From the NCBI RefSeq assembly GCF_014203325.1, contig NZ_JACHIV010000001.1, positions 6,077,501-6,141,500 of the forward strand: a stretch of DNA of 64,000 nucleotides, read 5' to 3'. The translations under genes were made by a program, and so were the position numbers. The notes below the pieces were generated by a model, which was not told the origin of the DNA, ran no database searches, and saw only the letters and a list, made by a program, of their open reading frames with translations. The stretch is from Saccharopolyspora gloriosae. Its GTDB lineage: Bacteria; Actinomycetota; Actinomycetes; Mycobacteriales; Pseudonocardiaceae. Of this stretch, positions 27,207 through 62,710 are shown one piece after another. The stretch's first letter is position 1. The number at the start of each line of letters is the position of its first letter.

Positions 27207-27527
27207 CCCCCCGGCGAGCAACCCCCGTACACCGAAGCCGCGCCTTGGGCGGCGAAGCAAGCCTGCCTCGCGGCCGAAGGCCGTGCCTCGCGGCGAAGCC
27301 GTGCCTTGGGCTGCGAAGCAAGCCTGCCTTGCGGCGAAGCCGTGCCTGTATGTGCGAAGCACATAGCCCACGTCAAAAAGGTGACAACCCGCGGGTTCTC
27401 AGCTGCTTCCTCGCGAGGACAGCTTTTTCCCTCGTGGCGGAGCCACTCGGGAAAAAGATCCCGCAGCGAGGAAGCAGCTGAGGTTCCGCCACCCCACCAC
27501 CCGAACAAAAAGACCGGGCGGGCAGTC
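27207..27527 (-). repeat. Composite intergenic repeat, copy A
   Basis: Lies in the convergent gap and reads on the minus strand, beginning right after the rlmB stop. Outer arms at 27398-27414 and 27466-27482 are perfect 17-bp complements (CTCAGCTGCTTCCTCGC). The inner hairpin is CTTTTTCCC/GGGAAAAAG (27423-27431, 27449-27457) with GTGGC/GCCAC and a three-base loop. A second perfect hairpin is at 27349-27365. An array of mini-hairpins (CGGC-TTC-GCCG type) runs to about 27207. Confidence 0.85.
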
Positions 27528-28499
27528 TCAGCGGGAAAAAGTACGGGTCCGACGGCGGCGGGCTACTTCGGAAAGTACAACCCCCGCAGCAACAGAAGCG
27601 TTCAACGACTCCACCTGCCCCGCCATCGGGATGGACACCGTCTGATCGCAGGTGTCCCGCACCAGCCGGGACAGTCCGCGCCCTTCCGATCCGACGACGA
27701 CGACGAGCGGCCCGGTGGCCAGTTCCAGCTCGTCGGAGGTGATGTCGGAGTCGGCGTCGAGCCCGATGACCATCAGGCCTTCGGATTTGAGGTCCTTGAG
27801 CGTCCGGGTCAGGTTGACCGCCATCGCCACGGGCAGTTGCGCGGCCGTGCCCGCGCTGGTGCGCCACGCGACTGCGGTGATTCCGGCGCTGCGCCGCTGC
27901 GGCAGGATCACGCCGTGCGCGCCGAACGCGGCGGCGGAGCGGATGACCGCTCCGAGGTTGCGCGGGTCGGTCACTCCGTCCAGCGCCACCAGCAGCGGTG
28001 GCATGCCGGAGTCCTGGGCGTGGGTGAGCACGTCCTCGGGGTGCGCGTACTTGTACGGCGGCACCTGCAGGGCGACGCCTTGGTGCAGCGCGCCGCCGGT
28101 GATCCGGTCGAGTTCGGTGCGGGGCACGTCGAGCACGGAGATGCCCTTGTCGGACGCGTTGCGCACGGCGTCCTTGACCCGGTCGTCGGTGTCGATGCCC
28201 TGCGCCACGTACAGCCCGGTGGCCGGGACGCCGGCGCGGAGGCATTCGGCGACGGGGTTGCGCCCGGCGACCAGTTCCGGCAGTTCACGCTGCTCGCGCT
28301 GCCTGCGGTTCTGCTGTTCGGTCTTCGCCTTGGCCGCGTCGGCCCGCTTCTTCGCGGGGTGCGGGACGCGGTCCTTGGCCTTCGGCGTCGGGCCTTTGCC
28401 TTCGAGCCCCTTGCGACGCTGGCCGCCGGAGCCCTTCACCATCCCCTTCTTGGAGCCCGGCTTGCGGGTCGCCCCACGGCGCTTGTCGTTGCCTGCCAA
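27528..28499 (-). CDS. rlmB: 23S rRNA 2'-O-ribose methyltransferase RlmB (TrmH family)
   Basis: A 323-residue SPOUT methyltransferase that methylates the 2'-OH of a 23S rRNA guanosine using SAM. About 70 basic N-terminal residues (RNA-binding tail) precede the substrate-binding domain ([15 protein letters not shown]) and the knotted domain with [37 protein letters not shown] and [21 protein letters not shown] start at 28499 with GGTGA upstream, six bases after cysS. Orthologue of Rv3579c by sequence pattern and position. Confidence 0.94.
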
Positions 28500-28505
28500 C
28501 GTTCG

Positions 28506-29900
28506 TCACCCGTCCTTGAGTGTCCACATCGGACCGTCGGGTGTGTCCTCGACGGCGACGCCGGAAGCCAGCAGCCGGTCCCGCAGCAGGTCGGCGGTGG
28601 CGAAGTCGCGCTCCGCCCGAGCCTTCTGCCGCTGCTCCAGCAGGCCGTCCACCAGCTCTGTCAGTGCTCGGCGCGCGGCGTCGTCGGCACCTGATTCCTC
28701 GGCCCACTGCGGGGCGAGGGGGTCCAGGCCGAGCACATCGGTCATGGCGCGCACCGAGGCCGCGGCGGTGCGCGCGACCTGGTCGTCACCGGTGTCGAGC
28801 GCGGCGTTGCCCTCGCGGATCGCGGTGTGCACGGCCGCGAGCGCCTGCGGGGTGGACAGGTCGTCGTCCATCGCCGCCGCGAACTCGGGGCGCACTTCGC
28901 CGGGTTCCACGCCGCCGGTGCGCTGGGCGACGCGGCGCACGAAGGATTCGATGCGCCGGTAGGTCGCCACCGCTTCCTGCAGCGCTTCCTCGGAGAACTC
29001 CAGCGTCGAGCGGTAGTGCGGGCCGACCAGGTAGTAGCGCAGCTCGCTGGCGCGGGCGCGCTGCAGCACCGCGGGAATGCTCATGGTGTTGCCGAGCGAC
29101 TTCGACATCTTCTCGCCGCTCATGGTCACCCAGGCGTTGTGCAGCCAGTACCGCGCGAAGGGGTCGCCGGCGGCGTTGGACTGCGCGAGTTCGTTCTCGT
29201 GGTGCGGGAACACCAGGTCCAGGCCGCCGCCGTGGATGTCGAACTCGCCGCCCAGGTAGTAGGTGGCCATCGCCGAGCACTCCAGGTGCCAGCCGGGGCG
29301 GCCGTCGCCCCACGGCGTCGGCCAGCTCGGCTCGCCGGGCTTCGCGGCCTTCCACAGCGTGAAGTCGCGCGGGTCGCGCTTGCCGCCCGCCGCGGCCTCG
29401 CCCTGCTGCACTTCGTCGAGGCGCTGGCCGGACAGCCGCCCGTAGGACTCGCTGAAGGAGCCGACGGAGAAGTAGACGTCGCCGCCCGCGCAGTAGGCGT
29501 GGCCCTTGTCGACGAGCCGCTGGATCAGCTCCACCATCTGGCCGATGTGCCCGGTCGCGCGCGGCAACGCCGACGGCGGGAGGCAGCCGAGCTGGTCGTA
29601 GGCCTTCTCGAAGGCGCGCTCGTGCGTGGCGGCCCACTCCCACCAGGGGCGGCCCGCCTCGTCGGCCTTGTTGATGATCTTGTCGTCGATGTCGGTGACG
29701 TTGCGGACCAGCCGCACGTCGTACCCGGTGCGCAGCAGCCAGCGGCGCAGCACGTCGAAGTTGAGCCCGCTGCGCACGTGGCCGATGTGCGGCACGCCCT
29801 GCACGGTGGCCCCACAGACGTAGATCGACGCCACTCCGTCGCAGCGCGGGTGGAATTCGCGCGTCGTGCGGGTCGCGGTGTCATGCAGGTGCAGGCTCAC
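28506..29900 (-). CDS. cysS: Cysteinyl-tRNA synthetase
   Basis: A 464-residue class I aminoacyl-tRNA synthetase charging tRNA-Cys. Seen are [18 protein letters not shown] (zinc Cys and HIGH box), the zinc-site LECS and HHENELAQS, and EKMSKSLGN (KMSKS loop). The C-terminal helical anticodon-binding region ends in [19 protein letters not shown]. The start is GTG 29900, since TACCAT lies six bases upstream (leaderless). An upstream in-frame extension exists but lacks conservation. Co-transcribed with rlmB. Confidence 0.96.
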
Positions 29901-29912
29901 GCCTCGATGGTA
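29901..29912 (-). promoter_or_regulatory. Leaderless -10 element for cysS
   Basis: On the minus strand TACCAT (29912-29907) is six bases before GTG 29900. Confidence 0.5.
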
Positions 29913-30011
29913 CGGGGATACCTCGATCGTGAACCACGACAGGGGGCTTCTCGTCAAGGCTTGGCTAGCGGCGCTCTCCTGGTCGGACCGTCTCGGAGCG
30001 GGCTCAGCCGA

Positions 30012-30719
30012 TCATGCTCCGGTCGTGGGCGCGGGCAGCACGCCGTGCTCGGCGACCGCCGCGAGCAGCGCATCCGGTCGTTGCGCGGTGGGCAGCGGTT
30101 CCACGATGGACACCGCGCAGCCGACCGCGGCGGCCCCGCCGTCGGCCTCCTCGCTGTCGCCGATCATGAGCGCTTCCTCCGGCGCCACGCCGATCCGCTC
30201 GCAGGCGCGCAGGAACAGCTTCGGGTCCGGCTTGATCACGCCTTCGACGTAGGACATCAGGTACTCGTCGACGAGGTCCAGCACGCCGAGCTTCGCGAAC
30301 GCCGGGCGGATGTCGAACGCGATGTTGCTGATCACTCCGATCAGCACGCCCGCTTCGCGCAGGTCGCGCAGCACCTGCGCGGTGTCCGGGTAGGGCGTCC
30401 AGGACAGCGGGTCGACGAGCCGGCCGTAGAGGGCCTCGGCCTGCTCCGAGGTGCCGACTCCGGACAACCGCAGCACTTCGAGGTTCGACTTGCGGTGCAT
30501 CGCGGGGTCGAGGTCGCGCTGCTCCCAGGCGTCCAGGAACTCCGGTTCCATCCGCACCGAGTTGCCGGTCGGCGCGGTGAGCCTGCGCAGCAGTTCCGTC
30601 TGCGCCTCCAAGTCCAGCGGATCCCCGCTGCCGTCGGTGAGCCCGGCGAGCCAGGTCTCGTCCTGTTCCAAGCGGAACAACGTGCCGGAGTAGTCGAAGA
30701 ACACCGCGCGCAAGCTCAC
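30012..30719 (-). CDS. HAD-family hydrolase
   Basis: A 235-residue haloacid dehalogenase-like phosphatase. Motif I is FFDYSGTLFRL (nucleophile Asp; the fourth residue is Ser rather than the usual Asp-Gly pattern DxDGT). Motif II is IGVISNIA, the motif III lysine is VIKPDPKLF and motif IV is MIGDSEEAD. An alpha-helical cap lies between residues 20 and 90. The substrate is unknown. The start GTG 30719 is chosen because TACGGT lies seven bases upstream; an ATG at 30749 is in frame. Confidence 0.85.
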   Translation of the reverse strand: MSLRAVFFDYSGTLFRLEQDETWLAGLTDGSGDPLDLEAQTELLRRLTAPTGNSVRMEPEFLDAWEQRDLDPAMHRKSNLEVLRLSGVGTSEQAEALYGRLVDPLSWTPYPDTAQVLRDLREAGVLIGVISNIAFDIRPAFAKLGVLDLVDEYLMSYVEGVIKPDPKLFLRACERIGVAPEEALMIGDSEEADGGAAAVGCAVSIVEPLPTAQRPDALLAAVAEHGVLPAPTTGA

Positions 30720-30732
30720 GGAACCCACCGTA
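30720..30732 (-). promoter_or_regulatory. Leaderless -10 element for the HAD gene
   Basis: On the minus strand TACGGT (30732-30727) is seven bases before GTG 30719. Confidence 0.45.
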
Positions 30733-30806
30733 CTGGCCGCGACCGGCATGGTCCGCAGATCGCGGCCGATCTCACGCCGCGACCGGTCGCGGCGCTCACC
30801 ACCCGC

Positions 30807-31007
30807 TCAGCAGTGCCCGGCGTCGTCCCGGTACATCGGCGCGACGATGCCGAACACGCACGAGGCGGTGCTGATCCAGAGGACGACGGCGGCGAGGCTG
30901 AGCGCGGCGGGACCGCCACCCGCCCACAGCAGCATCGAGCAGGGCCAAGCGATCAAGGGCTGACCGACCACGGTCCTGCGCACCCAGCGATTGCGTTCGA
31001 TCACCAT
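30807..31007 (-). CDS. Small membrane protein, 66 residues
   Basis: A hypothetical protein with two hydrophobic segments (VGQPLIAWPCSMLLWAGG and ALSLAAVVLWISTASCVFGIVAP), a basic N-terminus (MVIERNRWVRR) and a short hydrophilic tail. The ATG at 31007 has no clear ribosome site, and a start 15 codons further up is possible. It fills the gap between the HAD gene and ispF. I do not recognise the family, and it could be a chance frame. Confidence 0.45.
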   Translation of the reverse strand: MVIERNRWVRRTVVGQPLIAWPCSMLLWAGGGPAALSLAAVVLWISTASCVFGIVAPMYRDDAGHC

Positions 31008-31108
31008 GGGTCGAGCATGACCCCGGGTGAGCGCCACGGCCAGGGTGCGCACCCCGAGCTTTCCCCGACTTATCCCCCTGGTGGCGCGGAATTAACCGAA
31101 TCCGCAGG

Positions 31109-31591
31109 TCAAGCCACCGAGAAGAGCAATGCGGTGGCCACCGCGGCGACGCCCTCGCCGCGTCCGGTCAGCCCGAGCCCGTCACTGGTCGTGCCGGACA
31201 CCGACACCGGGGCCCCGAGCACGTCGGAGAGCACCCGCTGCGCCTCGTCCCGGCGCTTGCCGATGCGCGGCGCGTTGCCGATGACCTGGACCGTGGCGTT
31301 GCCGACCTGATATCCGGCCGCGGTGATCCGGGAGAGCACTTCGGTGAGCAGCTCAGCGCCGTGCGCCCCGGCCCACCGGTCGTCGCCGGTGCCGAACACG
31401 GCGCCCAGGTCGCCGAGGCCCGCCGCCGAGAGCAGCGCGTCGCACAGCGCGTGCGAGGCGACGTCGCCGTCGGAGTGCCCGCTGCACCCGTCGACTCCGG
31501 GCCACAGCAGCCCGGCGATCCAGCACTCGCGGCCGGCTTCCACGGGGTGCACGTCGACGCCCTGCCCGATCTTCGGCAGTGGTGCGGTCAC
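31109..31591 (-). CDS. ispF: 2-C-methyl-D-erythritol 2,4-cyclodiphosphate synthase IspF
   Basis: A 160-residue enzyme of the non-mevalonate (MEP) isoprenoid pathway, cyclising CDP-methylerythritol phosphate. The zinc ligands appear in GVDVHPVE (Asp, His) and the downstream His in [17 protein letters not shown] and [13 protein letters not shown] complete the family pattern. GTG at 31591 overlaps the ispD stop by four bases, so the pair is translationally coupled within carD-ispD-ispF. Confidence 0.96.
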
Positions 31592-32289
31592 CGGGGTTCT
31601 CCGATCGGTTCGACCGCCAGCACCGACTCGGCGACCGCCAAGTCGAACGCGGTGGTGATCTTCAACGCGTGCGGGTGGCCGGGCACGGTGCGCACCTCGC
31701 CACCGATGCGTTCGACGAGCCCGGCGTCGTCGGTGGCGGCGTCGCCCGCCGCGTCGTAGGCGGCGCGCAGCACGTCGAGGCTGAAGCCTTGCGGGGTCTG
31801 GACGCTGCGCAGCTGCGAGCGGTCCACGGTGGCGGTGACCGCGCCGCCCGCGTCGACCTGCTTGATCGTGTCGGCGACCGGGAGCACCGGGATCACCGCG
31901 GAGGCACCTGCGCGCACGGCGTCCACCACGTCGGTGATGACGACGGCCGGGGTGAACGCACGCGCCGCGTCGTGCACGAGCACCACATCGGCATCGGGAA
32001 CCACGCGTTCGGCGACCGCGAGCGCGAGCCGGACCGACTCGGTGCGATCCGCGCCACCGGGCACCACGTGCACCACGGCCGGATCGAACTCGCCGAGATC
32101 GCGTTCCACGACCTCCACCTGGTCGGGAGGAGCCGCGACGACCACGCGGTGCACGCGGCCGGAGTCCAGCAGACCGCGGACCGCGCGCACCAGCAGGGAT
32201 TCACCCGATACCGGGACCAGCGCTTTCGGCATTCCGGCTCCGAGGCGCACACCGCGCCCGGCAGCCGGAACGAGAGCCACCACGTTCAC
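31588..32289 (-). CDS. ispD: 2-C-methyl-D-erythritol 4-phosphate cytidylyltransferase IspD
   Basis: A 233-residue MEP-pathway enzyme that adds CMP to methylerythritol phosphate. N-terminal [19 protein letters not shown] is the CTP-binding signature. VHDAARAF and [11 protein letters not shown] follow, then [16 protein letters not shown] near the C-terminus. The start is taken as GTG 32289 ([11 protein letters not shown]), but two later GTG codons are possible. It lies 19 bases after carD. Confidence 0.94.
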
Positions 32290-32308
32290 GTTGAGCAGGA
32301 CCCGCCGA

Positions 32309-32797
32309 TCACACCGCCGTGGCGAGAACTTCGTCCAGCAGGGACTCGGCCTTGCCCTCGTCGGTTCCTTCGGCCAGTGCCAATTCGCTGACCAGTATTT
32401 GCCTCGCCTTGGCCAACATGCGCTTCTCACCCGCGGACAGGCCACGGTCCTTCTCGCGCCGCCAGAGGTCGCGCACCACTTCGGCCACCTTGTTCACATC
32501 GCCGGAGGCGAGCTTCTCCACGTTGGCCTTGTACCGCCGGGACCAGTTCGTCGGTTCCTCGGTATGCGGGGCACGCAGCACATCGAAGACTCGATCGAGA
32601 CCCTCTTGACCGACGACGTCCCGAACACCGACGATCTCGGCGTTGTCAGCGGGAACGCGAACGGTCAAATCACCCTGCGCGACCTTGAGGACGAGGTACT
32701 GCTTTTCCTCGCCCTTGATCACACGGGTCTCTATTGCTTCGATGAGCGCGGCGCCGTGATGCGGGTAGACGACGGTCTCTCCGACCTTGAAAACCAT
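32309..32797 (-). CDS. carD: CarD-type RNA polymerase-binding regulator
   Basis: A 162-residue global transcription factor that binds the RNA polymerase beta subunit and stabilises open complexes, chiefly at rRNA promoters. The N-terminal Tudor-like domain ([21 protein letters not shown]) contacts polymerase. The helical C-terminal domain carries [13 protein letters not shown], including the tryptophan that wedges at the -10 edge. ATG 32797 follows AGAGGA. Same order as Rv3583c-ispD-ispF. Confidence 0.96.
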
Positions 32798-33085
32798 GTG
32801 TCCTCTGCCCCTTTCGCTGCGCCCAGCTTAGCATGCGCGGCAACCGAGCCTCGACCGGCTCCCGCGTGTCGTCGCAGGTCAGGACGCGATCGGGGGTTGA
32901 CAAACAGCCTCCGGGCGTGCATCCGGAGGGTAGCCGGCGCCCCCGTTTGATCCACTGTGGACACCCTCCGAACACGGTTCACGACCCGGGATCGGGAACC
33001 GATGTGGGGTCTGCCTACTGGTCACGAGAACCGGACCATTAAGCTCCATCGCGGTCGTCCGGCTATCAGGAAGGACACTGCCACC

Positions 33086-33649: not shown

Positions 33650-33671
33650 TCTCCGGCGCTCAGCCGTCGAA

Positions 33672-33700
33672 GCCGAGGCCGCCTTCGGGCGGCCTTCGGC
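33672..33700 (+). terminator. Terminator hairpin with TTCG tetraloop
   Basis: GCCGAGGCCGCC (33672-33683) pairs with GGCGGCC-T-TCGGC (33688-33700), one base bulged, closed by a TTCG loop. It lies 22 bases after the lipoprotein stop. Confidence 0.6.
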
Positions 33701-33783
33701 ATGTCCGGGCCCGTTCCGGCAGGTCGCAGCCTCGGTCCGACACGCGGGCGTGTGTCGGACCGTGGCGCGTCGGGGCTGCCGGA

Positions 33784-33796
33784 TAGCCTCGCGATC
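33784..33796 (+). promoter_or_regulatory. Leaderless -10 element for radA
   Basis: TAGCCT (33784-33789) is seven bases before GTG 33797, with no ribosome site. Confidence 0.5.
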
Positions 33797-35173: not shown

Positions 35174-35193
35174 TTCCGAGCCGGGGAGGACAG

Positions 35194-36273: not shown

Positions 36274-36331
36274 CCGACCGTCCCTGATCCCGGCTTGAGC
36301 GGCGGGCCGGGCGGCGGAACCCCACTGCCTG

Positions 36332-36429: not shown

Positions 36430-36436
36430 CGGGCGG

Positions 36437-38120: not shown

Positions 38121-38141
38121 CCGACCCGAACGGAGCGAACC

Positions 38142-45014: not shown

Positions 45015-45838
45015 CCAGCACCCTCGAACGTTCCACCGGTTCGACCTCGGCGTCCCCGCCACCGCGGGAGCGCATCGGACCGCTGAGCACCGTGCGGCAC
45101 GGCCTCACGCTGGCCGGGCGCAGCGTGCTCAAGATCCGCAAGTCCCCGGAGGGGCTGCTCGACGTCACGCTGCAGCCGATCCTGTTCCTGGTGATGTTCG
45201 TGTACCTGTTCGGCGGCGCGATCGCCCAGGACACCGGCGCCTACCTGCAGCAGACGCTGCCGGGCGTGATGGCCATGAACATGATCTTCGGCAGCCTCGG
45301 CACCGGGATGCAGCTCAACACCGACATCAACAAGGGCGTGTTCGACCGCTTCCGCAGCCTGCCGATCGCCCGGTCCGCCCCGCTGATCGGTGCCGTGTTC
45401 GGCGACATCGTGCGCTACGTCGTGTCCGTCGTGGTGCTGCTGGGGGTGGCGACGCTGATGGGCTTCCGCATCGAGACCGGGCCGCTGCAGGCGTTCGCCG
45501 CGTTCCTCGTCGCGCTGGCCTTCGCGCTGTCGATGTGCTGGATCACGGTGTTCCTCGGGATGCTGATCCGCAGCCAGCAGGCGCTGCCCGGTGTGGCGAT
45601 GGCGTTCATGTTCCCGCTGACGATGGGCAGCAACGTGTTCGTCCCGACCGAGACGATGCCCGGCTGGTTGCAGACGTGGGTGCAGATCAACCCGGTCACG
45701 CAGCTCGCCGACACCGCCCGCGGGCTGATGATCGGCGGGCCGGTCGCCGGGCCGTTGACGGCGACGGTGATCTGGATGGTGGCCCTGACCGCCGTCTTCT
45801 TCCCGTTGGCTATGTGGGCTTATCGGCGTCGGGTTTGA
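45011..45838 (+). CDS. DrrB-like ABC-2 permease
   Basis: A 275-residue ABC-2 permease with six membrane helices. The N-terminal 25 residues are Ser/Thr-rich. KIRKSPEGLLDVTLQPILFLVMF and the ABC-2 signature region NVFVPTETMPGWLQTWVQINPVT match DrrB proteins. It pairs with the ATPase whose stop overlaps its start. Repeat copy B begins directly after its stop. Confidence 0.92.
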   Translation: MTSTLERSTGSTSASPPPRERIGPLSTVRHGLTLAGRSVLKIRKSPEGLLDVTLQPILFLVMFVYLFGGAIAQDTGAYLQQTLPGVMAMNMIFGSLGTGMQLNTDINKGVFDRFRSLPIARSAPLIGAVFGDIVRYVVSVVVLLGVATLMGFRIETGPLQAFAAFLVALAFALSMCWITVFLGMLIRSQQALPGVAMAFMFPLTMGSNVFVPTETMPGWLQTWVQINPVTQLADTARGLMIGGPVAGPLTATVIWMVALTAVFFPLAMWAYRRRV

Positions 45839-45840
45839 GT

Positions 45841-46180
45841 GGGGGTCGTTTGGCGGAACCTCAGCCGGTCTCTCGCTGCGGGATCTTTTTCCCCAGTGGC
45901 TCCGCCACGAGGGAAAAGCCGTCCTCGCGACAGACCGGCTGAGAACACGCAGGTGGGCCGGTTTTCGACGTGGGCCATGTGCTTCGCACATACAGGCACG
46001 GCTCCGCCGCAAAGCAGACTTCGCTCCGCTCGCCCACGGCACGGCTACGCCGCGAAGCACGGCCTTCGGCCGCGAGGCAGGCGTGCTCCGCAGCCCAAAG
46101 CACGGCTACGCCGCGGAGGCACGGCTTCGCCGCAGGGCGCGCTGGCTCGCTCGGCACGGCGGGTTCGGCGATAGGCGGGT
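45841..46180 (+). repeat. Composite intergenic repeat, copy B
   Basis: Same layout as copy A but on the plus strand, starting directly after the DrrB-like stop. Outer arms are at 45860-45876 and 45927-45943 (CTCAGCCGGTCTCTCGC, one mismatch in 17), with an inner CTTTTTCCC hairpin and central GTGGC-TCC-GCCAC. The second hairpin (45976-45992) has one mismatch. Mini-hairpins with CGGC-TTC/TAC loops continue to about 46180. The remaining 130 bases to the regulator gene hold nothing I recognise. Confidence 0.85.
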
Positions 46181-49994: not shown

Positions 49995-50723
49995 ATGCAC
50001 TCGACCGCACTGGCCGCTGCCGCCGCCGAGCCGACCGGGTTCACCGGTTGGGTCGTCAGCGTGATGGAGACCCTCGGTGGTCCGGGCGCCGGACTGATCA
50101 TCGCGTTGGAGAACGTGTTCCCACCGATCCCCAGCGAACTGATCCTGCCGCTGGCCGGGTTCACCGCCAGCCAAGGCGACATGAACATCGTCTCGGCGGT
50201 GCTGTGGACGACGATCGGGTCGGTCGTGGGCGCGCTGGTGCTCTACTGGCTAGGCGCGTCCCTAGGCCGGGAGCGGATGCGCCGGATCGCGGCGAAACTG
50301 CCGCTGGTCAAAGTCGCCGACGTGGACCGCACCGAGGCCTGGTTCGCCAAGCACGGCGTGAAAGCCGTGTTCCTCGGCCGGATGATCCCGCTGTTCCGCA
50401 GCTTCATCTCGCTGCCCGCGGGCGTGGAGAAGATGCCGCTGCCGACCTTCGTCCTGTTCACCGCCCTGGGCAGCCTGATCTGGAACACGCTGTTCGTGGT
50501 GGCCGGCTACCTCCTCGGCGAGAACTGGTACCTCGTCGAGCAGTACGCGGGCGTGGTGTCCAAGGTCGTGGTCGGCGCCGTCGTGCTCGCGATCGGCTAC
50601 TTCATCGTGGCCCGCCTTCGCCGCGACCGGGCCGAACAGGACTTGGCCGACGACATCACCGAAGAATTCCCCCGCGTCGACCCCTCCGAAGACGCCACTC
50701 AACAACTCCCCCGAGTCCGCTGA
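49995..50723 (+). CDS. DedA-family membrane protein
   Basis: A 242-residue inner-membrane protein of the DedA/VTT family, members of which flip undecaprenyl-phosphate or phospholipids across the membrane. NVFPPIPSELILPLAGF (with the acidic residue near the re-entrant loop) and FLGRMIPLFRSFISLPAGVEKMPL (conserved Arg residues) are diagnostic. Three further helices and an acidic C-terminal tail follow. ATG 49995 has GGAG five bases upstream. Repeat copy C follows the stop. Confidence 0.92.
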   Translation: MHSTALAAAAAEPTGFTGWVVSVMETLGGPGAGLIIALENVFPPIPSELILPLAGFTASQGDMNIVSAVLWTTIGSVVGALVLYWLGASLGRERMRRIAAKLPLVKVADVDRTEAWFAKHGVKAVFLGRMIPLFRSFISLPAGVEKMPLPTFVLFTALGSLIWNTLFVVAGYLLGENWYLVEQYAGVVSKVVVGAVVLAIGYFIVARLRRDRAEQDLADDITEEFPRVDPSEDATQQLPRVR

Positions 50724-50724
50724 C

Positions 50725-51140
50725 CCCCAGACCCGCCCGGTCGTTTTGCTCGGGTGGTCGGGTGGCGGAACCTCAGCGGCTTCCTCGCTGCGGGATCTTT
50801 TTCCCAAGTGGCTCCGCCACGAGGAAAAAAGCCGTCCTCGCGAGGAAGCCGCTGAGAACCCGCCGGTGGTCGGCTTCTCGACGTGGGCTATGTACTTCGC
50901 ACTTACAGGCACGGCCTTCGGCCGCGAGGCAGACTTCGCTCCGCTCGTCCACTGCACGGCTTCGCCACGAGCCACGGCCTACGGCCGCAAAGCAGGCGTG
51001 GCTTCGCCCGCCCACTGCACGGCTTCGCCGCAAAGGCATGGCCTACGGCCGCCAGGTAGGCGGGGCTTCGTCCATCCTGCTGCATGGTTTGCCGGGAGGT
51101 ACGGCTGTTGGCCGTTAGGTAGGTAGGCGTGGCTTCGCTC
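50725..51140 (+). repeat. Composite intergenic repeat, copy C
   Basis: Plus-strand copy right after the DedA stop. Outer arms 50772-50788 and 50840-50856 are perfect 17-bp complements (CTCAGCGGCTTCCTCGC). The inner CTTTTTCCC hairpin is present with one extra A on its right arm. The second hairpin (50889-50905) has two mismatches and looks decayed. The mini-hairpin array (ACGGCC-TTC/TAC-GGCCG, CGGC-TTC-GCCG) is the longest of the four and runs to about 51140. Confidence 0.85.
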
Positions 51141-51162
51141 GGCCTGTCGGCCCCGGATACGA

Positions 51163-51194
51163 AGCGGCCCCCGCACCTGGGTGCGGGGGCCGCT
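51163..51194 (-). terminator. 14-bp terminator hairpin after clpC
   Basis: AGCGGCCCCCGCAC (51163-51176) and GTGCGGGGGCCGCT (51181-51194) with a four-base loop lie 22 bases past the clpC stop on the minus strand. Confidence 0.7.
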
Positions 51195-51215
51195 GGTCGG
51201 ATCAACGATCCGAGA

Positions 51216-53774
<2,559 letters not shown>

Positions 53775-56007: not shown

Positions 56008-57080
56008 AACCGCACCAGCTTCCTGCGCCGCACCAACGCGATGAAGAACGGGGCGCCGACCATCGCCAGCATCACCCCGACCTGGACCTCCGCGGGCCGC
56101 GCGACCATCCGCCCCACGACGTCGGCCAGCAGCACCAGCGACGACCCCAGCAGCGCCGAGAACGGCAGCAGCCAGCGGTGGTCGGCCCCGGTGAAGTACC
56201 GCGCGATGTGCGGCACCACCAGGCCGACGAAGCTGATCGGCCCGCACACCGCGGCGGACGCGCCCACCAGCACCGCGATCGCCAGCACGCCGAGCCGCCG
56301 GGTCCACTGGACGCGGTGCCCGAGCCCGCGGGCGACGTCCTCGCCCAGCGCCAGCGCGTTGAGGCCGGAGGCGTTGGCCAGCCCCAGCACCAGCCCGGCC
56401 ACGACGAACGGCAGCACCTGCCAGATCACGCCGGGGTCGGTGACGGCGATCGAGCCGACCTTCCAGAACCGGTAGGTGTCCAGGCTCTCCTGGTCGCTGA
56501 GCACCAGCGCCGAGGTCGGGGCCTGCAGCAGGGCGCTGATCGCCATGCCCGCCAGCGCCAGCGTCACCGGCGTCGCGCCCGCGCCGCCCATCGAGCCGAT
56601 CGCGAACACCGCCAGCGCCCCCAGCAGCGCGCCGGCGAAGCCGAACCAGATGTAGCCGTAGAGGCTGCTGATGCCGAACGAGTACACGGCCAGCACCACG
56701 GCCAGCGCCGCGCCCTGGGTGATGCCGAGGATGCCGGGGTCGGCGATCGGGTTGCGGGTGTGGCCCTGCATCAGGGCGCCCGCGAGTCCCAGCGCGGCGC
56801 CGACCAGCACGCCGACGACGGTGCGCGGTAACCGCAGGTCCCAGACGATCAGCGAGTTCTCCGAGCCGGCCGGGGCGACCAGCGAGGTCCACACGTCGCC
56901 GAGCGGGATGGACTTCGCCCCGATCGCGACGCTGAGCAGGCAGCTGACGACGAGCACGCCGAACAGCACCGCCAAGCCCAGCAGCCTCCGTCTGCGGCGA
57001 GCTCCGAGCCGGGGCGCCGGTTCCGGCGCGGCCTCGCGCTCGGTGCCGGGCGGGCTCCCGACGGTTCCGCTGCGGCTCAA
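56004..57080 (-). CDS. Siderophore ABC transporter permease (FecCD family), first subunit
   Basis: A 358-residue FecCD permease. The N-terminus is soluble and Pro-rich, then ten helices: LIVWDLRLPRTVVGVLVGAALGLAGALMQGHTRNPIADPGILGI and VCGPISFVGLVVPHIARY are diagnostic. It forms a heterodimer with the next gene product. TTG 57080 follows GGGGAG. The iron box 43 bases upstream predicts iron repression. Confidence 0.93.
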   Translation of the reverse strand: MSRSGTVGSPPGTEREAAPEPAPRLGARRRRRLLGLAVLFGVLVVSCLLSVAIGAKSIPLGDVWTSLVAPAGSENSLIVWDLRLPRTVVGVLVGAALGLAGALMQGHTRNPIADPGILGITQGAALAVVLAVYSFGISSLYGYIWFGFAGALLGALAVFAIGSMGGAGATPVTLALAGMAISALLQAPTSALVLSDQESLDTYRFWKVGSIAVTDPGVIWQVLPFVVAGLVLGLANASGLNALALGEDVARGLGHRVQWTRRLGVLAIAVLVGASAAVCGPISFVGLVVPHIARYFTGADHRWLLPFSALLGSSLVLLADVVGRMVARPAEVQVGVMLAMVGAPFFIALVRRRKLVRL

Positions 57081-57122
57081 GGTCCCACTCCCCGCTCGTC
57101 CGGTCCGCCACTGGCCTCGAAG

Positions 57123-57141
57123 TTAGGTTAGGCCGCCCTAA
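57123..57141 (-). promoter_or_regulatory. IdeR/DmdR iron box
   Basis: TTAGGTTAGGCCGCCCTAA matches 16 of 19 bases of the TTAGGTTAGGCTAACCTAA operator bound by Fe-loaded IdeR/DmdR1. It lies upstream of the siderophore permease operon, so repression in iron-replete cells is predicted. Confidence 0.75.
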
Positions 57142-57894
57142 GGCTAACCGACGGCCCCCGCCGGACGGACCGGTCCGCGGGAGGCGATGAGCGTTCCGCT
57201 CGTCACTTCCGGCGGCCCGGAGCGGGCGAGAACGCGTTTCCAGTTGATCAGCATCGATTCCGAAACGGATCAACCGAGGGATTTCCCTAGCTCGGGCGAC
57301 TGATCGCCAGTAGCGCGACGGCAATCTTGCGGCGCACCCGGTCTCGCGAAGGATGAAATCCCGGTGGTTAGCGCCGAACGGAACGGAGGCTCATGAAACG
57401 CGCTCACGTAACACCCGCCGCAGCGATTTCACCGCGGGCCGCCGGATACCCCGGACGGCGATGTTCGCCGAAAACGCGGACGCCCCGACGTCCGGAAGTC
57501 CGGCGCCGGAACGGCGCGAAAAACGCCCCGCCGCGGAACATCATCGGCGCGGCACCGGCAAACGACCCGGGCGGCAAAACCGACCGGAGCGACAAACAGG
57601 GGCCCGGCGCGAACACCGAAGGTCACAATCCGATCTGCGAACGACGGCCGCGCCCGGCCCGGTCATCAGCATTCCTGGCGCGCGCGAACATCGGATCCGG
57701 TGCGGCTGGAAGGAAGATTCGGGATGCGGCATCCGGCGCAGCGGATCTGATCGCGCGAACGCGGCCGGCGATGACAGGGATCCGGATGTCCGCGTTCGGT
57801 GACCGCGCGTAGATCGGCGACTCCGCAACGCAGTGCGCGCCGATGCGGTGAAGTGTTCCGGGCCGGAGATCCGCGAACGATCCCGAACAACACG
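57142..57894. other. Long intergenic region with one weak reading frame
   Basis: About 750 bases between the siderophore operon and lsr2. A frame at 57393-57812 (139 residues) has GGAGG before its ATG. However, its product is low-complexity and Arg/Pro/Ala-rich, with AAA and CGG codons unlike the neighbours, and I recognise no domain. I do not call it a gene. Confidence 0.4.
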
Positions 57895-57925
57895 CAGGGG
57901 GCACCGGGAATCCCGGCACCCCCTG
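57895..57925 (-). terminator. Terminator hairpin after lsr2
   Basis: CAGGGGG...CCCCCTG with an inner CCGGG/CCCGG stem (57895-57925), separated by a two-by-two mismatch, ends 17 bases past the lsr2 stop. Confidence 0.6.
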
Positions 57926-57942
57926 ATCGCGTCAGTACGGCT

Positions 57943-58296
57943 TCAGTTCGCCTTGTGGTACTGGTCCACGATGTCCGCGGGGATCCGGCCCCGGTCCGAG
58001 ACCTTCAGGCCGCGCTTGCGGGCCCATTCCCGGATGGCCTGGTTCTGCTCCCGATCCGCACTCGTGGAGCCGCCCGCGGCGCGACCGGCCGCGGCGGGAC
58101 GCGGGCCGGGCTTCTTGCGACCTCCCGCGCGGCGAGCGCTGGAGACGTAGCCCGACAGCGCGTCGCGCAGCTCGCTCGCATTGTCGTTGGAAAGGTCGAT
58201 CTGGTACGAGACGCCGTCCAACGCGAACTCGACCGTTTCATCGGCCTGGCCGCCGTCGAGATCGTCGACAAGCGTGACCGTAACCTTCTGCGCCAT
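57943..58296 (-). CDS. lsr2: Nucleoid-associated silencer Lsr2
   Basis: A 117-residue H-NS-like protein. The N-terminal dimerisation domain is at residues 1-60 ([41 protein letters not shown]). A basic Gly/Ala/Pro linker precedes a C-terminal DNA-binding domain ([29 protein letters not shown]) with the RGR hook that enters the AT minor groove. It silences AT-rich and transferred DNA. ATG 58296 follows GGGGAGGA. Corresponds to Rv3597c. Confidence 0.96.
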
Positions 58297-59071
58297 GATG
58301 GCAGTCCTCCCCGGAGTTTCCGCAATAAACGCCGATGACGGCGCGACTCTGCCGAGACCGCTCTGCCGAGAGCTTCCCGGGTCCGGCTCTCCGCCCCGGG
58401 CCACACCGACTGCCCTTACTGCACTTCCCGGCGGCCGCCCAATCCGAGCGCGCCACCGGGTACTCCGGTCGACCTTGCAGTGAGCCCTTCGGCCTTCTGC
58501 CGGGTTCGTCGGCCGGTGCTCGAGACGGCACTGTTCGAGCCGCCCCACGACCGACCTGATGGAGTTCGACAGAGTGAGACAGTGCCCAACAATAGCCGTC
58601 ATCGAAGCCTTCACCGAACATTGTCACGGTCAGGTTAGCGCAGCCACTCCACAAACGCACTCACCCCGCCGAGGAAAAACCTAGGGGTCTCCCCGGATCG
58701 GGTCATTCCGGGCGTCCGGCTGAAGCGGATCGAGCACCGCGTTACGCACTCCGACGCACTACATCTGCGGTGCCGCCCCGACATTCCCGCACTCCGCGTC
58801 CACAACATTCCGCACTCATCGGCAAGCAGAAAGTGCGGACTCACCGCCCGGGACCTCGGTCGCCGCCGACTCTTCGACCGCCGCATCCCGCTCTCCCGGC
58901 AAGCCGACAAGAAGTATCGACCGCCGCGTCGCCGACTAGTCGTGAGCACTTAACGACGTCCGGCATCGGGATTCCGCTTTCCCACCGCCACCCCTCCGAG
59001 CGGGAACGACGCGTCGCGAAAAAGAACCGGACGGGCGGTTCTCCGGCGAGTCGGCGCTCCAGGAAGGGCGG
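58297..59071. other. Intergenic region upstream of lsr2; no lysS
   Basis: 775 bases without a convincing gene. In M. tuberculosis lysS and one more gene lie between lsr2 and coaX, and here nothing like them is seen. On the minus strand TAACCT near 58634 is a plausible -10, which would give lsr2 a leader of about 320 bases containing a short open frame (starting ATG near 58621, [12 protein letters not shown]...). Low-confidence reading. Confidence 0.4.
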
Positions 59072-59863
59072 TCAGCGGAAGTTGCGGTCGTAGACCAACC
59101 GCAGCCCGAGCAACGTCAGATCGGGCACGTGATGGGTGATCGTCTGGGATTCGGCGACCACCAGCGGCGCCAGACCACCCGTGGCCAGCACCACCGCCGT
59201 GCCGCCGTGGGTCGATTCCAGTTCGGCGACGATTCGCCGCACCAAGCCGTCCACCTGGCCCGCGAAGCCGTACAGGATCCCCGATTGCAGGCATTCCACG
59301 GTGTTCTTGCCGATGACCGAACGGGGCCGGGTGAGCTCCACTTTGCGCAACTGGGCGGCCCTGGAGGCCAGCGCGTCCAGCGAGATCTCCACACCCGGCG
59401 CGAACGCCCCGCCGAGGAACTCGCCCTTGGCTGAGATGACGTCGACGTTCGTGGAGGTGCCGAAATCGACCACCACGCAGTTCGTCGCGTGCAGGTGGTG
59501 CGCCGCCAGCGTGTTGATGACCCGGTCCGCGCCGACCTCCTTCGGGTTGTCGACCAGCAGCGGAACACCGGTGCGCACCCCCGGTTCCACCACGACGCGC
59601 GGAACGCCGTCCCAGTAGCGCCCGAGCATGACCCGCAGCTCGCGCAACAACGACGGGACGGTGGACAGCGCGGAGATGCCGGTGATCCGCTCGGCGTGCT
59701 CGCCGAGCAGCCCGCGCACCGTCAGCGCCATCTCGTCGGCCGTCATCCGCGGCTCGGTCCGCATCCGCCAATCCCGGACCAGGCCGCCCCCCGAGTCCTG
59801 CGACTCGGTGTCGTACAGGCCGAGGGTGATGTTCGTGTTGCCGACGTCCAGCGCGAGCAGCAC
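59072..59863 (-). CDS. coaX: Type III pantothenate kinase
   Basis: A 263-residue ASKHA-fold kinase that phosphorylates pantothenate, the first CoA-specific step. LALDVGNTNITLGLYD is the phosphate-1 motif, NPKEVGADRVINTLA the pantothenate site, VVVDFGTSTNVDVIS the phosphate-2 motif, and LATGGLAPLV the adenosine site. GTG 59863 follows GGGGAGG, 35 bases after panD. With panD and panC it places vitamin B5 synthesis and its activation in one unit. Confidence 0.96.
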   Translation of the reverse strand: MLLALDVGNTNITLGLYDTESQDSGGGLVRDWRMRTEPRMTADEMALTVRGLLGEHAERITGISALSTVPSLLRELRVMLGRYWDGVPRVVVEPGVRTGVPLLVDNPKEVGADRVINTLAAHHLHATNCVVVDFGTSTNVDVISAKGEFLGGAFAPGVEISLDALASRAAQLRKVELTRPRSVIGKNTVECLQSGILYGFAGQVDGLVRRIVAELESTHGGTAVVLATGGLAPLVVAESQTITHHVPDLTLLGLRLVYDRNFR

Positions 59864-59898
59864 CGGCTACCTCCCCGTTTCGCAGCGCACGGGCCCGG

Positions 59899-60375
59899 TC
59901 AGGCCTCGGGTGCGGCCAGCAGCGCGTCCAGCTTGGCGGCGTCGTCGGTCTCGGCCTCCTGCTGGGCCGTGGCGGCTCCGCTGGACAGGCCGGACCCCTC
60001 CGGCGCGGCGGCCGGGTCGACCCCGCGCTCCAGCACCGTGTTGTCGGCGTCGACGAAGATCACCTTCGGCTGGAAGGAACGCGCCTCCAGCTCGTCCATC
60101 ACGCCGTAGGCGATGAGGATCACCAGGTCGCCCGGCTGCACCAGGTGCGCCGCGGCCCCGTTGATGCCGATCACCCCGGACCCGCGCTCGCCGGTGATCG
60201 CGTAGGTCTCCAAGCGGGCGCCGTTGGTGACGTCGACGATCGTGACCTGCTCGCCCTCCAGCAGATCGGCCGCGTCCATCAGCTCGGCGTCGATCGTCAC
60301 CGACCCGACGTAGTGCAGGTCGGCCTGGGTGACCGTGGCCCGGTGGATCTTGGACTTGAGCATGGTGCGGAACAT
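59899..60375 (-). CDS. panD: Aspartate 1-decarboxylase PanD
   Basis: A 158-residue pyruvoyl enzyme making beta-alanine for pantothenate. The self-cleavage site Gly24-Ser25 (HYVGSVTID) yields the pyruvoyl group, and [22 protein letters not shown] and [11 protein letters not shown] form the active site. An unstructured, Ala/Glu-rich C-terminal tail of about 40 residues extends beyond the catalytic core, as in mycobacterial PanD. ATG 60375. Confidence 0.96.
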
Positions 60376-60464
60376 CGCGGACTACCTCCCCCACCGCCCG
60401 GAGCGGTCGGAATTCGAAGCCTGTACCTGTGGGTGCGGCGCACACCGGACGCGGCGCCGCGGGA

Positions 60465-61364
60465 TCACTCCGGCGCCGGGCCCAGCTGCACGAGCGCGTT
60501 GTCGATGAGCCGCGTGTCGCCGACCTCCGCCGCCACCAGCAGCCGCGCCTCGCCCGCGTCCGGCACCGGGCCGAGCTCGACGTCACGCAGCTCCAGGTAG
60601 TCGACCCGCACCAGCGGCTCGGAATCCAGCACCGCGCGCGCCGCCGCCAGCACCGCGTCCGGACCCGCCGGACCCGCGTGCACGCCGGCCGCCATCGCCG
60701 CGGACAACCCCAGCGCCGCCTGCCGCTGCTCGTCCGAGAGGTAGGCGTTGCGCGACGACAGCGCCAGCCCGTCGGCCTGGCGCACGATCGGCACGCCCTG
60801 GATGCGGCTGTCGAAGTTCAAGTCCCGCGCCATCCGGCGGATCAGCACCAGCTGCTGGTAGTCCTTCTCCCCGAACAGCGCCAGATCTGGGCGCACGATG
60901 CCGATCAGCTTCGCCACGACGGTGAGCATCCCGTCGAAGTGCCCCGGCCTGCTCGCGCCCTCCAGCTGCTCCCCCAGCCCGCCCGCGGTGAGGCCGACCT
61001 GGCGGTCCGGGGCGTACATGTCCGCAGGTTCCGGCGCGAGCACCAGCTCCACGCCCTCCTCGCGGCACAGCTCCAAGTCGGCCTCGAACGAACGCGGATA
61101 GCGGTCGAGGTCCTCGCCGGGGCCGAACTGCAGCGGATTCACGAAGATCGACACGACGGTCACCGCGGCAGGCACCTTCCGGGCCGCGCGGATCAACTCC
61201 AGATGCCCCTCGTGCAGCGCGCCCATAGTCGGGACCAGCGTGATCGGGCGGCCCGTGGCGCGCAGCGCGCGCGTCACCTTCGCCAGCTCCGCCGGGCGGC
61301 GGTGCACCGTGAGCTCCCGCGCGGTGTAGCCGGGGCCCGCGCCCACGTTCTCGGCTGTGCTCAT
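60465..61364 (-). CDS. panC: Pantothenate synthetase PanC
   Basis: A 299-residue ligase joining pantoate and beta-alanine with ATP. VPTMGALHEGHLELIRAAR contains the HIGH-like motif. FVNPLQFGPGEDLDRYPR binds pantoate, LFGEKDYQQLVLIRRM and LALSSRNAYL complete the ATP site. ATG 61364 overlaps the upstream stop by ATGA. Order Rv3603c-panC-panD-coaX is that of mycobacteria. Confidence 0.96.
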   Translation of the reverse strand: MSTAENVGAGPGYTARELTVHRRPAELAKVTRALRATGRPITLVPTMGALHEGHLELIRAARKVPAAVTVVSIFVNPLQFGPGEDLDRYPRSFEADLELCREEGVELVLAPEPADMYAPDRQVGLTAGGLGEQLEGASRPGHFDGMLTVVAKLIGIVRPDLALFGEKDYQQLVLIRRMARDLNFDSRIQGVPIVRQADGLALSSRNAYLSDEQRQAALGLSAAMAAGVHAGPAGPDAVLAAARAVLDSEPLVRVDYLELRDVELGPVPDAGEARLLVAAEVGDTRLIDNALVQLGPAPE

Positions 61365-62254
61365 CGCTGCTCCTCGTCGAGCGCCTCGTGTACTTCGGTG
61401 ACCGTTCGGGAATCGAGCAGACCGGCCTTCTCGGCGCGCTCCGCGGTCCGCTTCGCCATCGCCACGTACCCGGCCACCATCTCCGGCGCCGTCGCGCGCA
61501 GCGATCCCAGGTGCGCGCGGATCGTGGAGAGATCGCCGCGCGACACCGGCCCGGTCAAGCCCCGGTCGCCGAACCGCAGCGCGTTGTCCAGCGACGCGGA
61601 CAGCACCGGCGCCAGCACCCGGTCCGGGATCTCGATCCCCGCCTGCCGCAGCAGGTCCGCGGCCTCGTCGACCAAGGTGATCAAGTGGTTCGCGCCGTGC
61701 GACAGGGCCGCGTGGTACAGCCGCCGGGACCCCTCCGGGACGCGGACCGGTTCACCGCCGAGCTCCAGCGCCAGCACCTCGCCGACGTTCCACGCCGCCT
61801 CGTCCTCCGGTGCCGTCACCGCCACGCACGCCGTCGCGAGCCGCTCCACGTCCTCGGCCCGGCCGGTGAAGGTCATCGCCGGGTGCAGCGCCAGCGTCAG
61901 CACGCCCAGCTCCGCGGCGGGCTCCAGCACGGCCGCGCCGTGCGCACCGCAGGTGTGCAGCAGGATCTGCCCGGAACGCAGCGAACCCGTCGCCGCCAAG
62001 CCGCGCACCAGACCGGGCAGCACGTCGTCGGGAACGGCGAGAACGACCAGATCGGCCGCGTCGGCGACCTCGTCGGGCGGGCGCACCGGCACCCCCGGCA
62101 GCAGCTCCTCCGCGCGGCGCAACGACGCGTCCGACACCGCGGACACCGCCACCACCTCGTGCCCGGCGCGCGTCAGCGCCGCCCCGAGCACCGCACCGAC
62201 CCGGCCCGCGGACACCACTCCGACCCGCAGCCGAGGTCCTGCAGACATCGCCAC
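61361..62254 (-). CDS. Rossmann-like/DUF2520 dehydrogenase-like protein (Rv3603c-like)
   Basis: A 297-residue protein with an N-terminal NAD(P)-binding fold (RVGVVSAGRVGAVLGAALTRAGHEV, LVVLAVPDDVL) and a helical C-terminal DUF2520 domain (LYHAALSHGANHLITLVDEA, LTGPVSRGDLSTIRAHL). The pattern is like ketopantoate- or pyrroline-carboxylate-reductase-type enzymes. Position before panC suggests a role tied to pantothenate, for example pantoate supply, but this is unproven. GTG 62254 sits five bases after GGGAGG; ATG 62248 is the alternative start. Confidence 0.85.
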   Translation of the reverse strand: MAMSAGPRLRVGVVSAGRVGAVLGAALTRAGHEVVAVSAVSDASLRRAEELLPGVPVRPPDEVADAADLVVLAVPDDVLPGLVRGLAATGSLRSGQILLHTCGAHGAAVLEPAAELGVLTLALHPAMTFTGRAEDVERLATACVAVTAPEDEAAWNVGEVLALELGGEPVRVPEGSRRLYHAALSHGANHLITLVDEAADLLRQAGIEIPDRVLAPVLSASLDNALRFGDRGLTGPVSRGDLSTIRAHLGSLRATAPEMVAGYVAMAKRTAERAEKAGLLDSRTVTEVHEALDEEQR

Positions 62255-62344
62255 GTCGTCCTCCCAACCGTTCCAGTCCCGCAGTCGGGTACCGGACAGC
62301 AGCGCGAGACTAGCCGTCGGGTTGTGCGGGGTGCTTGGTTGGGT

Positions 62345-62710
62345 GGTGAGAACCACCTGGGGTCGTTTTGCTCGGGTGGCCGGGTGGCGGAACCTCAGTC
62401 GGTCTCTCGCTGCGGGATCTTTTTCCCAAGTGGCTCCGCCACGAGGGAAAAGCTGTCCTCGCGAGAGACCGACTGAGAACCCGCGGGTGGTCGGCTTCCT
62501 GACGTGGGCTATTCGCTTCGCGAATACAGGCACGGCCTCCGGCCGCAACGCAGACTTCGCTTCGCTCGCCCAAGGCACGGCTTCGCCGCTAGGCACGGCC
62601 TACGGCCGCGAGGCAGGCGTGGCTTCGCCCGTCCAGAGCACGGCTCAGGTGGGGCTTCGTCCGCTCCAGCCGCACGGCTCGCTCGACACGGCCTTTGGCC
62701 CGGGGTCTCC
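62345..62710 (+). repeat. Composite intergenic repeat, copy D
   Basis: Outer arms 62394-62410 and 62461-62477 (CTCAGTCGGTCTCTCGC) are perfect complements yet differ from copies A and C at several positions. The inner hairpin CTTTTTCCC is retained. The second hairpin (62510-62526) reads TATTCGC-TTC-GCGAATA, fully paired but different from copy A. The mini-hairpin array runs into the 3' end of the PrsW gene. Unlike A-C, it lies between two genes of the opposite strand. Confidence 0.85.

What the first reader, a model, noticed from the sequence alone, without database searches (positions are those of the whole stretch)
27207..62710. Family of four composite structured repeats in intergenic gaps
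Four elements of roughly 300-400 bp (27.21-27.53, 45.84-46.18, 50.73-51.14, 62.35-62.71 kb) share one architecture. A GGCGGAACC flank precedes an 84-85-base double hairpin, a second hairpin preceded by CGTGGGC, and then a run of tiny hairpins with TTC or TAC loops. No reading frame, transposase or known element explains them. Four copies in 64 kb would mean a very abundant family genome-wide.
Basis: seen in the sequence. Interest (0 to 1): 0.85.

Follow-up and report, generated by a model that had tools for sequence, protein, structure and literature searches.

The report
Palindromic repeats hugging stop codons
A soil actinobacterium carries nearly three hundred copies of one folded, non-coding DNA element, usually placed just after the end of a gene, and seven letters in its stem are swapped between species much faster than the rest while both sides of the stem still match.

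Summary
In detail: all four elements are real and share one architecture. The genome (Saccharopolyspora, 6.83 Mb) holds 284 exact matches to the 5' half of the element's head; backwards control 0. A match occurs in 76 of 297 genomes of its family and in none of 395 others drawn from the phylum (strict filters). Rfam finds only a tRNA in the window. New facts: (1) the head starts 22-48 nt after a same-strand stop codon in 94 of 149 copies, 23-49 nt in 19 of 21 further copies outside the top-scoring set, 31-47 nt in 22 of 26 in a congener. (2) A 7-nt stem segment varies yet pairs fully (G-U allowed) in 119 of 147 copies; shuffle maximum 23. (3) At 18 sites shared with a sister species it is no more alike than chance, while the rest of the head differs by 1.7%. 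G-U is not favoured over A-C (14 vs 30), so pairing looks DNA-level. Best reading: a REP/BOX-like dispersed element, re-copied between sites, serving as an exchangeable mRNA 3' end. Mobiliser unknown.

The parts
27378..27490 (-). Element 1, head hairpin (variable stem CTGCTTC / GAAGCAG)
   Evidence: CM match 27343-27490, 182.1 bits
27491..27527 (-). Element 1, leader between the rlmB stop codon (27528-27530, minus strand) and the head
   Evidence: GGAACC 41 nt after the stop
27343..27377 (-). Element 1, CGTGGGC and second hairpin TATGTGC-TTC-GCACATA (rest of the CM match)
27233..27347 (-). Element 1, tail of mini-hairpins, period about 61 bp
45839..45851 (+). Element 2, shortened leader directly after a TGA stop (45836-45838)
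45852..45998 (+). Element 2, head and second hairpin (variable stem CCGGTCT / AGACCGG)
   Evidence: (159.0 bits)
45999..46160 (+). Element 2, tail of mini-hairpins; right end approximate, by eye
   Evidence: 46038-46135
50724..50763 (+). Element 3, spacer and leader after the stop codon at 50721-50723
50764..50870 (+). Element 3, head hairpin (variable stem CGGCTTC / GAAGCCG)
   Evidence: (168.4 bits); no element at this site in G001-G005
50885..50909 (+). Element 3, second hairpin after GACGTGGGC
50907..51145 (+). Element 3, tail, 63-bp unit (TRF 50907-51070, 2.6 copies), decaying to the right; right end by eye
62358..62385 (+). Element 4, leader; preceded by the short hairpin GGTGGTGAGAACCACC (62342-62357) rather than by a stop codon
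62386..62532 (+). Element 4, head and second hairpin (variable stem TCGGTCT / AGACCGA)
   Evidence: (171.9 bits)
62533..62705 (+). Element 4, tail of mini-hairpins; right end approximate, by eye

Best explanation
A family of non-coding, dispersed, modular DNA elements of the REP/BIME/BOX kind. Each copy has a leader, a ~93-nt imperfect palindrome (head) and either one hairpin (subtype B) or a second hairpin plus a tandem mini-hairpin tail (subtype A). Most copies sit in sense orientation a few bases after a stop codon and so lie in the 3' end of that gene; I infer that the element serves there as a portable, interchangeable mRNA 3' end (blocking 3' exonucleases and/or helping termination). Shown: abundance, architecture, stop-anchored sense placement in two species of the genus and in another genus, presence/absence differences between species, a hypervariable 7-mer that stays paired, complete turnover of that 7-mer at shared sites, chimeric arm pairs. 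Inferred: heads are copied over one another by ectopic gene conversion (or re-inserted at the same sites), and mismatched arms are restored by hairpin-templated DNA synthesis, so pairing persists without an excess of G-U intermediates. The conserved non-palindromic parts (GGAACCTCAG/CTGAGAACCC and CTSGCTGCGGGATC/GCYGTCCTCGCSAG) are then the site read by an unknown host or mobility protein.
For: Abundance and range. Placement: 119 of 149 own copies have a same-strand gene upstream and 94 of 149 have GGAACC 22-48 nt after its stop; 19 of 21 further copies outside the top-scoring set, 23-49 nt; 22 of 26 in G003 at 31-47 nt and 16 of 24 in G018 at 23-56 nt. Paired 7-mer, G-U allowed: 119 of 147 fully paired, shuffle mean 14.6, maximum 23; 27 of 48 distinct arm pairs, shuffle maximum 8. 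Turnover: 18 of 49 G002 copies lie behind a gene whose counterpart here also carries a copy; 0 of 18 share the 7-mer (0.2 expected by chance) and 15 of 18 differ with strict Watson-Crick pairing in both; 7-mer difference 61% (permuted 57%), constant head positions 1.7%, flanking DNA about 10%. Conversion: 22 of 36 imperfect own copies join two arms each known from perfect copies, against 9% for random single mutants. Presence/absence and subtype change at one site. Pairing at DNA level: G-U 14, A-C 30, other 22 among 1,981 pair cells (copies are not independent).
Against: Placement is not absolute: 25 of 149 copies lie antisense to both flanking genes and 5 between divergent genes; in G018, 16 of 24 fit the close range. 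No exact insertion boundary or target duplication was found: compared sites look replaced rather than simply filled. No mobilising enzyme was identified. By eye there is no conserved U-tract, so canonical intrinsic termination is not supported; terminator-like matches in 45.0-63.5 kb were 10 against 5.1 +/- 2.3 in shuffles. No expression data were available. Heptamers are strongly linked to subtype (z 9.0) and inner stem (z 5.8), so exchange of heads between A and B is limited. That 0 of 18 shared sites agree is itself what chance gives; independent re-insertion at the same gene ends would explain it as well as conversion.
Confidence: 0.5

Rival explanations
1. Non-autonomous transposable element (MITE-like) with a preference for gene 3' ends or terminator hairpins. 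Copies in two species at one gene are often independent insertions; there is no host function.
For: Site 50.7 is filled only here among the six genomes compared, and G002 has copies at sites empty here (17.4 kb: gap 37 nt here, 35 in G003, 43 in G001, 392 in G002). Site 45.8 carries subtype A here and a compact B in G001. Heptamers at shared sites are unrelated.
Against: No Y1 transposase in G000-G003. No target duplication or clean terminal inverted repeats seen; closing-arm pairing is inconclusive. 18 of 49 G002 copies share a site although only 170 own copies were available for comparison, which I judge to be more than random insertion would give (not computed). At the rlmB site three genomes share the same CGCCCGGTC leader variant.
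Confidence: 0.25
2. A structured 3'-UTR RNA under selection on its RNA fold (a regulatory or protein-binding RNA motif), spread by duplication.
For: Sense orientation and narrow distance behind stop codons; conserved internal-loop sequences across genera with changed stems; both-side changes that keep pairs in the outer, inner and second hairpins.
Against: G-U pairs are not enriched over A-C in the variable stem (14 vs 30; 11 vs 19 on distinct arm pairs), where I would expect an excess for an RNA family (general knowledge). Sites turn over between species about 5-10% apart, so no gene-specific role is kept.
Confidence: 0.2
3. Chance similarity or assembly artefact.
For: None found.
Against: 284 and 300 exact matches against 0 backwards controls; present in single-contig genomes and in several species.
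Confidence: 0.01

Closest known systems
REP / BIME / REPIN repeats with RAYT transposases (GTAG and CGTC superfamilies)
   Same: Palindromic intergenic repeats in high copy number, mostly downstream of genes and between unidirectional or convergent genes, many within 20 bp of ORF 3' ends (PMC3733652: start of abstract, passages).
   Different: REPs are 20-40 bp palindromes (PMC3733652, abstract). This unit is about 200-400 bp with a 93-nt head, a varying but paired 7-mer and, in subtype A, a tandem tail; no PF01797 gene in G000-G003.
Pneumococcal BOX elements
   Same: Composite: fixed end modules with a variable number of tandem inner modules, strong folding, likely effect on co-transcribed genes (PMC3049150, passages seen).
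   Different: The tail here is terminal, not enclosed; no BOX sequence similarity was tested; hosts unrelated; no transposon with matching ends was found or searched for beyond PF01797.
SPRITE (terminator-like pneumococcal repeat)
   Same: Dispersed hairpin repeat resembling a terminator (PMC3049150, passages seen).
   Different: SPRITE has a duplex followed by a U-rich stretch (same passages); by eye no conserved U-tract follows the head here.
Mycobacterial MIRU repeats
   Same: Actinobacterial repeats said to sit at stop codons (recalled; one search gave only a listing).
   Different: MIRUs are coding-compatible units inserted at stop/start overlaps (recalled). Here stop codon usage is much as in other genes: TGA 134 of 160 with, 163 of 181 without element.

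Membership tests
REP/REPIN-RAYT | Single palindromic unit of 20-40 bp | tested here: not met
   Head alone is about 93 nt, whole element about 200-400 bp
REP/REPIN-RAYT | Y1 (RAYT-type) transposase in the same genome | tested here: not met
   PF01797: no match in G000-G003 nor in G018; 5 of the 13 element-bearing genomes searched have one
REP/REPIN-RAYT | Intergenic, near gene 3' ends, hundreds of copies | tested here: met
REP/REPIN-RAYT | GTAG or CGTC tag at the foot of the palindrome | tested here: inconclusive
   By eye, many B leaders read GCGTAG but well before the head, and A leaders mostly lack it
MITE | Terminal inverted repeats | tested here: inconclusive
   Left/right arms beyond the small hairpin pair better than permuted in G003 (1 of 100 permutations as good) but not clearly in own B (7 of 100) or G018 (21 of 100); none for A
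MITE | Target site duplication | tested here: inconclusive
   Empty sites at 17.4 and 33.7 kb show replaced gaps, no clear duplication; relatives too diverged
BOX | Fixed modules with variable-number tandem module | tested here: met
   61-63 bp tail unit in varying number, absent in some copies (G001 at rlmB); a likeness in build, not homology
BOX | boxA/boxB/boxC sequences | not tested
   No BOX sequence was aligned
Rfam RNA families | Score above a gathering cut-off | tested here: not met
   Window: only a tRNA; element 3 at E<=5: miRNA models at 18.5-23.1 bits against cut-offs of 80-90
Intrinsic terminator | Hairpin followed by U-tract | tested here: inconclusive
   In elements 2-4 the matches that touch the head involve its T-run inside one arm; the T-run is shorter in G018 (by eye)

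The most novel reading that the evidence does not exclude
A self-renewing palindrome: an element with no transposase of its own whose heads overwrite one another across the genome and whose 7-base stem works as a changing, almost always matched label. DNA-hairpin-templated copying keeps both arms complementary while sequence memory at each site is lost between sister species. This would be a DNA-level concerted-evolution mechanism distinct from RAYT-driven REPIN spread.
Probability: 0.3. Interest if true: 0.82.

Novelty: new variant of a known kind. Interest (0 to 1): 0.62.

Why it matters
The family is found across a group that includes antibiotic and insecticide producers, among them Saccharopolyspora spinosa (one locus) and a genome of the size I recall for S. 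erythraea (G017, 46 hits), and the listings of my paper searches showed no description of it. It may give actinobacteria a counterpart to REP and BOX elements without the usual transposase. It also offers a clean test system: sites are partly shared, heads are constant, and a 7-mer records each overwrite or re-insertion, so their rates could be read directly from strain comparisons. If the elements set mRNA 3' ends, some 200-300 genes of this genome have an exchangeable 3' end (inference).

Tried and rejected
RAYT mobilisation: PF01797 absent from G000-G003 and G018. RNA-level selection as the main cause of pairing: G-U not enriched. Insertion specific to TGA: stop codon use is much the same with and without an element. 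Closing stem enclosing the whole element: no signal for A, inconclusive for B. A depletion of copies in one chromosome half, first suspected from the score-capped list, was dropped: one search lists many copies there; its row list is truncated and was not used for strand claims. A 213-nt difference at 7.4 kb of L189 in G001 lies inside a predicted gene and holds no element. IMG/VR, phage and plasmid collections: no match. Literature: nine searches, seen as listings, showed no description of this repeat; ISfinder and most subscription papers were not available. PMC3610266, PMC12306157, PMC3733652, PMC6749651 and PMC3049150 were seen as passages only.

Limits: the 149 own copies are those found by a motif expression in the window and in the stretches fetched around the best blastn and CM hits, so they lean to subtype A. 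The 21 are further copies from the first part of the pattern list that were not in that set. G002, G003 and G018 copies are mostly top CM scores. Genes were called with a codon-usage script of my own, not by annotation. Searches of over 40 genomes used stricter filters and few scored candidates per genome, so absences there are not proof. Left out of counts: 2 of 149 copies, 21, 13 of 296, 6 of 170, one of 18 pairs in the constant-position count.
Full report
WHERE THE WINDOW LIES. The window is G000:C1:6077501-6141500, one contig of 6,825,909 bases. A search with the RlmB-like protein next to element 1 gives Saccharopolyspora sp. NFXS83 at 97% identity and then other Saccharopolyspora species. 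G001 has a contig of the same length (70,328) as the NFXS83 record, so I take G001 to be that strain.

THE OBSERVATION. Direct reading shows four elements with one order of parts. A covariance model built from 32 copies, these four among them, scores the four at 159-182 bits. Element 1 is on the minus strand, the others on plus. Their heads fold far better than shuffles (z -5.4 to -8.3). The tail is a 61-63 bp tandem unit of mini-hairpins in elements 1 and 3.

ABUNDANCE AND RANGE. The model finds 150 hits here, the cap of that search. The exact pattern GAACCTCAG-N(5-9)-CTCGCTGCGGGATC occurs 284 times (153 and 131 on the two strands), the 3' half pattern 300 times, backwards controls 0. The 5 other genomes held for the genus all have it; of 24 genomes from other families of the order none has. 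In the family, 76 of 297 genomes and 15 of 46 genera have a match; in a sample of 396 across the phylum only the own genome does (strict filters). S. spinosa carries a relative at the rlmB site (57.6 bits). G017, with 46 hits, has 8,212,805 bases, the size I recall for S. erythraea NRRL 2338.

SUBTYPES. Subtype A is head, GACGTGGGC hairpin and mini-hairpin tail. Subtype B is the same head followed by one CTCAGCGGCTTCGCCGCTGA hairpin. The copies read from G003 and G018 and, with variation, from G004, G005, G010 and G017 are of the B kind, so A looks derived. Of 164 own copies parsed, 121 are A, 40 B and 3 neither; this sample leans to A because the model was built on A. Sixteen of 149 copies carry a further 5' module ending in GCTTCCACGG. 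Across genera the stems and apical loop change while GGAACCTCAG, CTSGCTSCGGGATC, GCTGTCCTCGCSAG and CTGAGAACCC largely stay (by eye).

PLACEMENT. Of 149 own copies, 119 have the nearest upstream gene on the same strand; in 94 of the 149 the head (GGAACC) starts 22-48 nt after its stop codon; 25 lie antisense to both flanking genes and 5 between divergent genes. Some of the other 25 same-strand copies have an extra 5' module between stop and head. Of 21 further copies outside that set, 19 have a same-strand stop 23-49 nt upstream. In G003 it is 22 of 26 (31-47 nt), in G018 16 of 24 (23-56 nt). About 30 nt of this is conserved leader, so the element begins within roughly 0-18 nt of the stop. Pairs of convergent genes can each have their own sense copy (L368, L371). 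Element 4 in the window is an exception: it follows a short hairpin, GGTGGTGAGAACCACC, which is also present, with one change, at the empty site of G003.

THE VARIABLE STEM. Seven positions of the outer stem take 30 forms on the 5' arm in the own genome, and the two arms pair fully (G-U allowed) in 119 of 147 parsed copies (shuffled arms: mean 14.6, maximum 23); among 48 distinct arm pairs 27 do (shuffled maximum 8). The last two positions are nearly always pyrimidines. Over 283 parsed copies from all genomes, 231 are fully Watson-Crick; among the other cells there are 14 G-U, 30 A-C and 22 others. Selection on a sense RNA should favour G-U over A-C; it does not. Of 36 imperfect own copies, 22 combine two arms each known from perfect copies, against 9.2% of random single mutants that land on a known arm, which points to recombination between copies.

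TURNOVER. G002 is about 90% identical in flanking DNA. Of 49 of its copies, 18 sit behind a gene whose counterpart here also carries a copy among the 170 own copies available. None of the 18 shares the 7-mer, where shuffled partners give 0.2; in 15 the two differ and both are strictly Watson-Crick. The 7-mers differ at 61% of positions, no better than permuted pairs (4.28 against 3.99 +/- 0.32 of 7), while 1,377 constant head positions (17 of the 18 pairs) differ at 1.7%. The label at a site therefore keeps no memory of ancestry although the head is almost unchanged. The pools differ (G002 sample: TTGGTCT 19, CTGTCTT 13; own: TCGGTCT 25 of 147). In the window the sites also turn over: 27.3 kb is filled here and in G001 and G002; 45.8 kb is A here, compact B in G001 and empty in G002-G005; 50.7 kb is filled only here; 62.3 kb is filled here and in G001 and G002; G002 has copies at 17.4, 33.7 and 42.8 kb (the last also in G003), where no head is found here.

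MECHANISM. Shown: a dispersed, modular, folded, non-coding element; mostly sense placement next to stop codons; presence/absence differences; a paired, rapidly replaced 7-mer; chimeric arm pairs. Inferred: heads are re-copied between sites by gene conversion or repeated insertion, and a mismatch in the palindrome is repaired from the opposite arm at DNA level, which would explain pairing without a G-U excess. My data do not separate conversion in place from repeated insertion. The conserved unpaired parts argue for recognition by a protein. The placement suggests that the element serves as a replaceable 3' end: in several relatives that lack it, other hairpins follow the stop (by eye), and element-free gene ends show a weak hairpin signal starting about 4-24 nt after the stop (against mononucleotide shuffles). 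No expression data support this yet.

COMPARISON WITH KNOWN KINDS. REPs share abundance and the 3'-end position (PMC3733652, passages) but are 20-40 bp and are tied to RAYT; no Y1 transposase is found in G000-G003 or in G018, which has 110 hits, while 5 of the 13 element-bearing genomes searched do have one. BOX elements share the modular build (PMC3049150, passages). Rfam has no family for it at gathering score. I file it as a new variant of the dispersed palindromic repeat kind, not as a member of REP, BOX or a MITE family.

VERDICT. The finding is real and larger than stated. The surprising part is the memory-free but usually matched 7-mer at shared sites. The mobilising agent and the function remain open.

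Noticed in passing
window 19975-20209: A second palindromic repeat (GTGAACGGNCCGTTC...GAACGGNCCGTTCAC, 95-bp tandem); similar GTGAACG...CGTTC stretches follow the stop codon at the 50.7-kb site in G003, G004 and G005.
   Followed up: no
L069, L070, L077 near 4950-5100; L071, L072 near 5000-5150: At the rlmB 3' end other Saccharopolyspora species carry quite different long hairpins (GTGAGTGTTTTG..CTATAGC.. and CAATTTCAATGGAAATCG types), as if different palindrome families fill the same 3' position.
   Followed up: no
L076 about 4960-5010 (S. rosea): GGTGGCGGAACCTCACTGAGACGGG at the same site looks like a head whose palindrome has been lost between CTCA and CTGAG.
   Followed up: no
16 of 149 own copies, e.g. 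L004, L014, L017 upstream of the element: An additional 5' module (GGTTGCNGTGGTGCGTGGAAGG...CTTCCACGG) extends some copies, so the composite has at least one more optional part.
   Followed up: partly
own gene ends in the fetched stretches, last 37 nt of coding sequence: GC is lower in the 160 gene ends with an element than in the 181 without (0.677 vs 0.721) and local structure is weaker.
   Followed up: no
window 50723-51216, counterpart in G001 (L278, L314): The site of element 3 holds about 1.5 kb of other DNA in G001, 0.7 kb in G003 and 1.3 kb in G005: perhaps a general hot spot for insertions.
   Followed up: no
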